A stretch of 12,671 nt of DNA, taken from the NCBI GenBank assembly GCA_016191305.1, contig JACPOX010000155.1, positions 1-12,671 on the forward strand, given 5' to 3'. A program made the translations under genes and the position numbers. Positions 7,080 to 8,618 of the stretch are shown here, piece by piece. A model generated the notes under the pieces. It did no database searches. It saw only the letters and a list, made by a program, of their open reading frames with translations, and was not told where the DNA came from. The stretch comes from Legionella longbeachae. Its GTDB lineage: Bacteria; Pseudomonadota; Gammaproteobacteria; Legionellales; Legionellaceae. The stretch's first letter is position 1. Each line of letters starts with the position of its first letter.

Positions 7080-8618
7080 ATGGCTAAAGAATTACGTTTT
7101 GGTGACGATGCTCGTCTACAAATGCTTGCTGGTGTTAATGCATTAGCTGATGCAGTTCAAGTAACTATGGGCCCACGTGGTCGTAATGTAGTATTGGAAA
7201 AATCTTATGGTGCCCCTACTGTAACTAAAGACGGTGTATCTGTTGCTAAAGAAATTGAATTTGATCAACGCTTCATGAACATGGGCGCTCAAATGGTTAA
7301 AGAAGTGGCTTCTAAAACTTCTGATACGGCTGGAGACGGTACTACTACCGCTACTGTATTAGCTCGTTCTATCCTGGTTGAAGGCAATAAAGCAGTAGCT
7401 GCTGGCATGAACCCAATGGATCTGAAACGCGGTATTGATAAAGCAGTTCTTGCGGTTACTAAGCAATTACAAGCGATGTCCAAGCTTACTGTTGAAGACG
7501 GTAATGGACTGGAAAATGAATTGTCTGTTGTTGAAGGTATGCAATTTGATCGTGGTTATATTTCTCCATACTTTATCAACAATCAACAAAACATGACTTG
7601 TGAACTAGAACATCCATTTATTCTATTAGTTGACAAGAAAATCTCTAGCATTCGTGATATGTTGGCTGTATTGGAAGGTGTTGCTAAATCAGGCCGTCCA
7701 TTATTGATTATTGCTGAAGATGTTGAAGGCGAAGCCTTAGCTACTCTTGTTGTTAACAACATGCGTGGTATTGTTAAAGTATGTGCTGTTAAAGCACCAG
7801 GATTTGGCGATCGTCGTAAAGCAATGTTACAAGACATCGCAATTCTGACTCATGGCCAAGTAATTTCTGAAGAAATTGGTAAGAGTTTGGAAGCTGCTAC
7901 ATTAGAAGATTTAGGTACTGCAAAACGTATCGTTGTCACTAAAGAAAACACAACTATTATTGATGGCGAAGGTAAAGCTGCTGAAATCAATGCTCGAATT
8001 GGTCAAATTCGTGCGCAAATCGAAGAAACTTCTTCTGACTACGATCGTGAGAAATTACAAGAGCGCGTTGCCAAATTATCTGGCGGTGTTGCCGTAATTA
8101 AAGTAGGTGCTGCTACTGAAGTAGAAATGAAAGAGAAGAAAGCTCGTGTTGAAGATGCATTGCATGCTACTCGTGCTGCTGTAGAAGAAGGTATTGTAGC
8201 TGGTGGTGGTGTTGCTTTGATTCGCGCTCAAAAAGCTCTGGATTCATTGAAAGGTGACAATGACGATCAAAATATGGGTATTAATATTCTGCGTCGTGCT
8301 ATTGAATCACCAATGCGTCAGATCGTTTCTAATGCAGGTTATGAAGCTTCAGTTGTGGTGAACAAAGTATCTGAACATAAAGAAAACTATGGTTTTAACG
8401 CTGCTACTGGTGAGTACGGTGACATGGTTGAAATGGGTATTCTAGATCCAACTAAAGTAACTCGTATGGCATTACAAAATGCTGCTTCTGTAGCAAGTTT
8501 AATGTTAACAACTGAGTGCATGATTGCTGATTTACCTAAGAAAGACGAAGCTGGTGCTGGCGATATGGGCGGCATGGGCGGAATGGGTGGTATGGGAGGC
8601 ATGGGCGGCATGATGTAA
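7080..8618 (+). CDS. groEL: Chaperonin GroEL (HtpB) with an internal in-frame deletion
   Basis: GroEL is the 60-kDa chaperonin that folds proteins in a double heptameric ring with GroES. The true start is the ATG at 7080 (MAKELRFGDD), with AGGAG seven bases upstream; an in-frame ATG at 7047 overlaps groES and is not credible. The product is 512 residues against about 548-550 for Legionella HtpB and E. coli GroEL. The loss is internal. Residue 135 (AMSK, AAG at 7482-7484) is followed by one Leu (CTT 7485-7487) and then TVEDGNGLENEL, whereas other GroELs have 39 residues here (E. coli 137-175, including the QVGTISANSD and KVGKEG blocks). This is most of the first intermediate-domain segment. 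The equatorial ATP motif AGDGTTTAT, the apical domain, the catalytic Asp in VEDALHATRAAVEEG and the C-terminal GGM tail are intact. If real, the protein is probably impaired. Confidence 0.95.
   Translation: MAKELRFGDDARLQMLAGVNALADAVQVTMGPRGRNVVLEKSYGAPTVTKDGVSVAKEIEFDQRFMNMGAQMVKEVASKTSDTAGDGTTTATVLARSILVEGNKAVAAGMNPMDLKRGIDKAVLAVTKQLQAMSKLTVEDGNGLENELSVVEGMQFDRGYISPYFINNQQNMTCELEHPFILLVDKKISSIRDMLAVLEGVAKSGRPLLIIAEDVEGEALATLVVNNMRGIVKVCAVKAPGFGDRRKAMLQDIAILTHGQVISEEIGKSLEAATLEDLGTAKRIVVTKENTTIIDGEGKAAEINARIGQIRAQIEETSSDYDREKLQERVAKLSGGVAVIKVGAATEVEMKEKKARVEDALHATRAAVEEGIVAGGGVALIRAQKALDSLKGDNDDQNMGINILRRAIESPMRQIVSNAGYEASVVVNKVSEHKENYGFNAATGEYGDMVEMGILDPTKVTRMALQNAASVASLMLTTECMIADLPKKDEAGAGDMGGMGGMGGMGGMGGMM
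8565..8609 (+). repeat. Five 9-bp tandem repeats encoding the GroEL Gly-Gly-Met tail
   Basis: Five copies of the pattern ATGGGNGGN stand in a row, followed by ATG ATG TAA. They encode the (MGG)n-MM tail found at the end of most GroEL proteins, which hangs unstructured in the folding cavity. Copy number of such repeats can vary between strains. Confidence 0.9.

What the first reader, a model, noticed from the sequence alone, without database searches (positions are those of the whole stretch)
7479..7490. GroEL with a clean 38-residue in-frame loss in the intermediate domain
Residue 135 jumps from AMSK to L-TVEDGNG. All GroELs I know have about 39 more residues here (E. coli 137-175), with the near-invariant QVGTISANSD and KVGKEG blocks, including Ile150, Ala152 and Asp155. 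The rest of the protein is highly conserved and the frame is kept (114 bp net loss). The hybrid CTT codon fits a join of CCA (Pro) and ATT (Ile) codons: C plus TT. The segment forms much of the hinge that couples ATP binding to apical movement, so a functional ring seems unlikely. If real, the genome needs a second groEL, or this is a specialised or inactive variant. Legionella normally has one htpAB pair, and groEL is usually essential. An assembly error or deliberate edit is a serious alternative.
Basis: partly seen in the sequence, partly recalled or inferred. Interest (0 to 1): 0.85.

Follow-up and report, generated by a model that had tools for sequence, protein, structure and literature searches.

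The report
Shortened GroEL gene, probable assembly artefact
The chaperone gene groEL really lacks 38 codons in this sequence, but the same draft genome shows similar losses, in and out of frame, in several other conserved genes, so the gap is almost certainly a flaw of the assembly and not a new kind of chaperone.

Summary
In detail: groEL (window 7080-8618) encodes 512 aa and lacks 114 nt between bases 7485 and 7486. That removes helices F and G of the intermediate domain. groEL was found in 43 of 44 other genus genomes, and all 43 have the 114 nt. The junction occurs in 1 of 143 order genomes, this one. The held assembly shows no second groEL and no other copy of the missing segment.
It is very probably not biology. 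The source is a draft of 323 contigs, 81.7% complete. A second clean loss (69 nt, adc) lies 1.7 kb away in the same contig. In a sample of the assembly, 7 of 90 conserved genes have internal losses, against 0 of 130 in loci of 29 relatives, a narrow control of 13 kinds of gene. Three of the seven break the frame, including spoT, which is whole in 43 of 44 other genus genomes. The sampled contigs also carry 16 short N runs, read here as scaffold gaps. The rest of groEL shows ordinary constraint. Best reading: contig ends joined across an unassembled stretch with no N left to mark it. Raw reads would settle it.

The parts
6767..7057 (+). groES, 96 aa, complete
   Evidence: NF001527 162.6 bits over the cut-off of 120, profile 1-96 of 96; 92-97% identical in ten relatives
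7080..8618 (+). groEL, 512 aa as assembled, 38 codons short
   Evidence: TIGR02348 GroEL 764.7 bits over 582.1, in two stretches; alignment with 30 relatives
7485..7486 (+). clean junction; relatives have 114 further nt here (helices F and G of the intermediate domain)
   Evidence: helix positions from passages of PMC3053311
8683..9351 (-). acetoacetate decarboxylase gene (adc), 222 aa as assembled, 23 codons short
   Evidence: PF06314 in two stretches; tblastn with the 6 of 10 relatives' stretches that gave a full match shows a 23-aa gap
9189..9190 (-). second clean junction in the same contig; relatives have 69 further nt here
   Evidence: both flanks placed in 5 of 10 relatives' stretches

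Best explanation
The 114-nt loss is an artefact of the draft assembly. The likely course is that the stretch was not assembled, for want of coverage or because of strain mixture, and the two contig ends on either side were then joined by the scaffolder or gap closer with an estimated gap of zero or less. No N was left, and a clean but false deletion resulted. That the frame is kept is a one-in-three accident. An amplification chimera (single-cell type) would leave the same mark. Shown: the loss, its absence from all relatives in which groEL was found, similar losses in other genes of the same assembly, and short N runs. Inferred: that the N runs are scaffold gaps, and the joining step itself. 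The organism's real groEL is most likely of ordinary length.
For: (1) A second clean loss, 69 nt in adc, lies in the same contig. (2) In 36 readable sampled contigs (363 kb), 90 genes of at least 65% identity to relative G005 were compared: 7 have an internal loss of 57-339 nt (lengths), against 0 of 130 genes in 29 loci of 29 relatives (Fisher P 0.0017). The control holds only 13 kinds of gene, 29 of the 130 being groEL; without window genes and without groEL in the control it is 5 of 83 against 0 of 101, P 0.017. (3) Three of the seven lengths (119, 155, 61 nt) break the frame of genes 82-95% identical to the relative. One is spoT: broken with a TGA inside in this genome, and open over (nearly) its whole length in 43 of 44 other genus genomes. 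(4) 16 short N runs of 12-76 nt in 11 of the 36 contigs; in putA a 60-N run stands where the relative has 15 nt. (5) Of 143 order genomes only this one carries the junction, and none of the 120 listed proteins lacks the segment. (6) Constraint on the remaining codons is ordinary (dN/dS 0.045 against a median of 0.041 among relatives), and only three residues are unique among 31 sequences, one of them the junction residue. (7) Both parts of the gene fit one lineage: no strongly supported conflict.
Against: No reads were available, so the joining step is not seen. Four of seven losses keep the frame, slightly more than the one third expected (P 0.17). If a less similar gene dropped by the 65% filter is added, it is five of eight, about 0.09 by my own arithmetic; selection on real deletions would push the same way. 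The part of groEL left of the break has a higher dN/dS (0.060 against 0.038), though inside the 5-95% range among relatives. The missing segment was not found elsewhere in the assembly, so there is no stray piece to prove an assembly split. Against relatives, the groEL junction shows no overlap that would explain a merge by shared sequence. The N runs could in part be masking by the tool's operators. Broken genes are not unique to this genome: three other fragmented genomes (G015, G028, G034) gave incomplete dihydrolipoyl dehydrogenase matches, and the SpoT relative (RelA type) of G015 is split.
Confidence: 0.93

Rival explanations
1. A real, recent in-frame deletion in the sequenced population that makes an inactive or altered GroEL, with a second groEL in the unassembled part or a mixed population that still carries the whole gene.
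For: The frame is kept; the flanks are clean; the genome is only 81.7% complete, so a second copy could be missing. Four of seven losses in the assembly are in frame.
Against: 43 of 44 other genus genomes carry groEL, each with its matches at one place, so a second copy has no precedent there. It would need a separate event for each of the other losses, three of which break the frame, including spoT. No clear compensating or relaxed changes in the rest of the gene.
Confidence: 0.04
2. A true genome-wide decay by small deletions, as in a host-restricted lineage, of which groEL is one victim.
For: The assembly is small (2.48 Mb; many other genus genomes are 3.4-4.8 Mb, though a few are 2.0-2.7 Mb) and carries several disrupted genes.
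Against: The size is partly explained by 81.7% completeness. Six of the seven disrupted genes are otherwise 82-95% identical to the relative, the SDR gene 70%, and groEL shows ordinary dN/dS. Loss of groEL and spoT together with normal constraint elsewhere is not how decay usually looks (established knowledge, not tested).
Confidence: 0.02
3. A chimera: the two halves come from different species joined inside a conserved gene.
For: The closest relatives of the left and right parts differ in raw identity: G008 at 92% on the left, G020 at 91% on the right.
Against: In separate trees both parts place the window near the split of the same two clades. The left placement has weak support (36-59) and the right has 98, so there is no supported conflict, and branch lengths are alike, 0.055 and 0.062.
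Confidence: 0.01

Closest known systems
GroEL / HtpB, group I chaperonin (TIGR02348, PF00118)
   Same: The parts on both sides of the gap align with GroEL over their whole length, the GGM tail is present and groES lies directly upstream.
   Different: 38 residues of the N-terminal part of the intermediate domain, with helices F and G, are absent from the assembled sequence.
Collapsed or unmarked gaps in draft and metagenome assemblies (recalled as a kind; no paper on it was read)
   Same: Joins with the flanks intact, losses of 57-339 nt in and out of frame, several in one assembly, together with short N runs.
   Different: The joining step cannot be shown without reads; the paper searches on it gave listings only, none.

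Membership tests
GroEL (group I chaperonin) | score over the curated cut-off of TIGR02348 | tested here: met
   764.7 bits over 582.1, but in two stretches
GroEL (group I chaperonin) | continuous intermediate domain with helices F (141-152) and G (155-169) | tested here: not met
   the gap covers about residues 136-173 in E. coli structure numbering, derived from the alignments; helix positions from passages of PMC3053311
GroEL (group I chaperonin) | partner groES directly upstream | tested here: met
   6767-7057, complete
GroEL (group I chaperonin) | ATP-driven folding by a 14-mer | not testable with these tools
Assembly artefact (false join) | loss confined to the one assembly | tested here: met
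   1 of 143 order genomes; 43 of 44 other genus genomes carry the segment, the other had no groEL match
Assembly artefact (false join) | similar losses elsewhere in the same assembly, not limited to in-frame ones | tested here: met
   7 of 90 genes, 3 of 7 out of frame; 0 of 130 in a control of 13 kinds of gene
Assembly artefact (false join) | scaffolded assembly with gaps of doubtful size | tested here: inconclusive
   16 short N runs of 12-76 nt, one of 60 N in putA where the relative has 15 nt; that they are scaffold gaps is inferred
Assembly artefact (false join) | reads disagree with the junction | not testable with these tools
   no reads held

The most novel reading that the evidence does not exclude
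A living Legionella-like lineage in which groEL has truly lost helices F and G of the intermediate domain, giving a chaperonin whose equatorial and apical parts are joined only through the other strand of the intermediate domain.
Probability: 0.03. Interest if true: 0.8.

Novelty: not a real feature. Interest (0 to 1): 0.08.

Why it matters
It shows that a striking in-frame loss in an essential gene of a draft genome can be a false join. It also warns that other apparent deletions in this assembly (adc, dihydrolipoyl dehydrogenase, spoT, a GadC-like antiporter, an HtrA-like protease, an SDR enzyme) should not be read as biology without reads. If it were real, it would challenge the view that the N-terminal half of the intermediate domain is indispensable to GroEL.

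Tried and rejected
Chimera of two species: separate trees of the two parts gave no supported conflict. Second groEL: the Pfam search of the own genome found only this gene, and the missing segment, taken as it stands in a relative, has no match better than E 0.25 in the own genome. In three other genomes the best E is 1e-36 to 5e-54, one of them being the genome the query came from. Same junction in public proteins: a search focused on the junction returned 7992 proteins, of which 120 were listed. In 92 the distance from SKPC to ITVE is 40; in the other 28 the segment is seen by eye, although one (P0070) has a different left side. The protein collection is clustered at 90% identity, so a close variant could be hidden in a cluster; the window's own protein was not listed. 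Plasmids: no near match. Papers: searches for GroEL intermediate-domain deletions, for Legionella groEL in-frame deletions and for gap artefacts gave listings only (12 of 244, 3 of 3, 10 of 15, 10 of 23, none, 8 of 20 papers seen); one paper, PMC3053311, was read in passages. No listed title describes this loss; the other papers were not opened. The AAGCTT (HindIII-like) word at the junction was considered as a sign of cloning and set aside: one six-letter word, and nothing comparable was sought at the other breaks. No structure prediction was run, since a model of the shortened chain would not tell artefact from biology.

Rows dropped before counts, and weak rows kept: the start-finding script failed on 36 of 112 loci, which were left out; 3 of the 76 parsed were the window itself. 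In some searches, genes under 65% identity were dropped, including one (a 1194-aa gene, pieces at 65% and 59%) with a further in-frame loss of about 474 nt. Five sampled contigs that read as N throughout were left out of the rates. The control is narrow: 130 comparisons but 13 kinds of gene, 29 of them groEL and 24 dsbD. Among the seven losses, the SDR one (339 nt net at base level, 351, 5 extra letters at the join, 70% identity) is the least certain. The dihydrolipoyl dehydrogenase one (57 nt) is a single 19-aa gap in protein alignment but is spread over four nearby gaps by blastn. The HtrA-like one is 155 nt by protein alignment, while blastn places 137 nt with a 16-nt overlap and a nearby 2-nt gap. 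Not counted among the seven: frameshifts of a few letters and a spurious overlapping pair, and putA, where N replaces sequence. One break of a few letters was also seen in the control (adc of L123).

Full report
What is there. The window is a whole contig (12,671 bp, C138 of 323) of a draft genome of 2.48 Mb, 81.7% complete. It carries glnE, rimO, dsbD, groES, groEL, adc, a patatin-like gene, a 3-hydroxybutyrate dehydrogenase gene and a small glycine-zipper gene. By its nearest named relatives it belongs to Legionella in the broad sense. The groEL gene at 7080-8618 gives 512 aa. Aligned with 29 loci of the genus and Legionella gresilensis, whose GroEL is 548-550 aa, it lacks 38 codons at one point, and the residue Leu136 stands where all 30 have Ile174. 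The DNA break is between 7485 and 7486, with 114 nt missing. In E. coli structure numbering this is about residues 136-173 (derived). It contains helices F (141-152) and G (155-169), which passages of PMC3053311 describe as the part of the intermediate domain that moves down over the nucleotide site. A ring lacking them would not be expected to work; that is inference from established GroEL mechanics.

Is it shared? Of 44 other genomes in the genus, 43 carry groEL and all 43 have the extra stretch; one 82%-complete genome gave no match. A degenerate pattern for the junction matched 1 of 143 genomes of the order, the window's own. A protein search focused on the junction listed 120 of 7992 hits, and all 120 carry the segment; the collection is clustered at 90%, so close variants could be hidden. 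The own genome has one Cpn60 gene, and the missing segment is not found anywhere else in it, although the same query is found at E 1e-36 or better in three other genomes, including the one it was taken from.

Does the rest of the gene look like that of a changed protein? Hardly. The dN/dS of the remaining codons against 29 relatives has a median of 0.045, against 0.041 among relatives. The left part is higher (0.060 against 0.038) but inside the 5-95% range. Only three residues are unique to the window, and one of them is the junction codon. There is no clear sign of relaxed constraint or of compensation. The two parts fit a single lineage.

The turning point was the neighbouring gene. The adc gene at 8683-9351 matches its families in two stretches and lacks 23 codons that the six relatives with a full adc match carry. 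It too is a clean break, 69 nt at 9189/9190. Two clean losses 1.7 kb apart in conserved genes suggested a flaw of the assembly, so I sampled it.

Sample of the assembly. From 41 contigs (36 readable, 363 kb), 90 genes of at least 65% identity to open frames of about 1.6 Mb of relative G005 were compared. Seven have an internal loss: groEL 114 nt, adc 69, dihydrolipoyl dehydrogenase 57, an SDR enzyme 339 net, a GadC-like antiporter 119, an HtrA-like protease 155 and SpoT 61 (names, where the GadC-like, HtrA-like and SDR genes score under their curated cut-offs). The last three lengths named (119, 155, 61) break the frame. groEL, adc, the antiporter and spoT are sharp at base level; the other three are less so. 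The same test on 130 genes in loci of 29 relatives gave no such loss, only one break of a few letters. Fisher P is 0.0017, or 0.008 without the window's own genes. That control holds only 13 kinds of gene, 29 of the 130 being groEL; with groEL taken out of the control and the window's genes out of the sample it is 5 of 83 against 0 of 101, P 0.017. SpoT is open over its whole or nearly whole length in 43 of 44 other genus genomes, and in this one it is split with a TGA inside (DNA). Dihydrolipoyl dehydrogenase is 459 codons open in this genome; three other fragmented genomes gave incomplete matches to it, and one of them (G015) also has a split RelA-type gene, so broken genes occur in other drafts too. 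Four of seven losses are in frame, not different from one third (P 0.17). A further in-frame loss in a gene under the identity filter would make it five of eight.

Signs of scaffolding. The readable contigs contain 16 N runs of 12-76 nt in 11 contigs. In putA a run of 60 N stands where the relative has 15 nt. I read these as scaffold gaps of doubtful size; masking by the tool's operators cannot be wholly excluded. The simplest account is that some gaps were closed with an estimate of zero or less, leaving joins with no mark. The groEL and adc joins show no overlap between the flanks against relatives, which fits joining by pair links better than merging by shared sequence. An amplification chimera would look alike. 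This last step is inference.

Verdict. The evidence puts that alternative far ahead. The finding is of low biological interest; its value is as a caution. The bold reading, a living lineage with a GroEL lacking helices F and G, is kept at about 3% and could be settled by mapping the raw reads.

Noticed in passing
window 8683-9351 (-), break at 9189/9190: adc (acetoacetate decarboxylase) lacks 69 nt, 23 codons, that six relatives carry; a clean break of the same kind as in groEL.
   Followed up: yes
own genome, contig C300 3014-5103: spoT is split by a 61-nt loss that breaks the frame; 43 of 44 other genus genomes have it whole or nearly whole.
   Followed up: yes
own genome, contigs C1, C25, C30: Internal losses in a GadC-like antiporter (119 nt), an SDR enzyme (339 nt net), dihydrolipoyl dehydrogenase (57 nt) and an HtrA-like protease (155 nt).
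   Followed up: partly
own genome, contig C18, putA: A run of 60 N inside putA stands where the relative has 15 nt, probably a scaffold gap of wrong size.
   Followed up: partly
own genome, contig C137 667-4125: A gene 69% identical to a 1060-aa protein of the relative has four extra in-frame blocks of 20, 50, 20 and 20 aa, perhaps an internal repeat.
   Followed up: no
genome G015, contig C125: The RelA-type gene and the dihydrolipoyl dehydrogenase gene each appear split in this 160-contig genome; real or again an assembly flaw is not known.
   Followed up: no
window 7482-7487: The junction happens to form AAGCTT, a HindIII site; taken as chance.
   Followed up: no
window 9344-10534 (-): Patatin-like phospholipase with a DUF3734 tail; weak match, far under the cut-off, to the VpdC family.
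   Followed up: no
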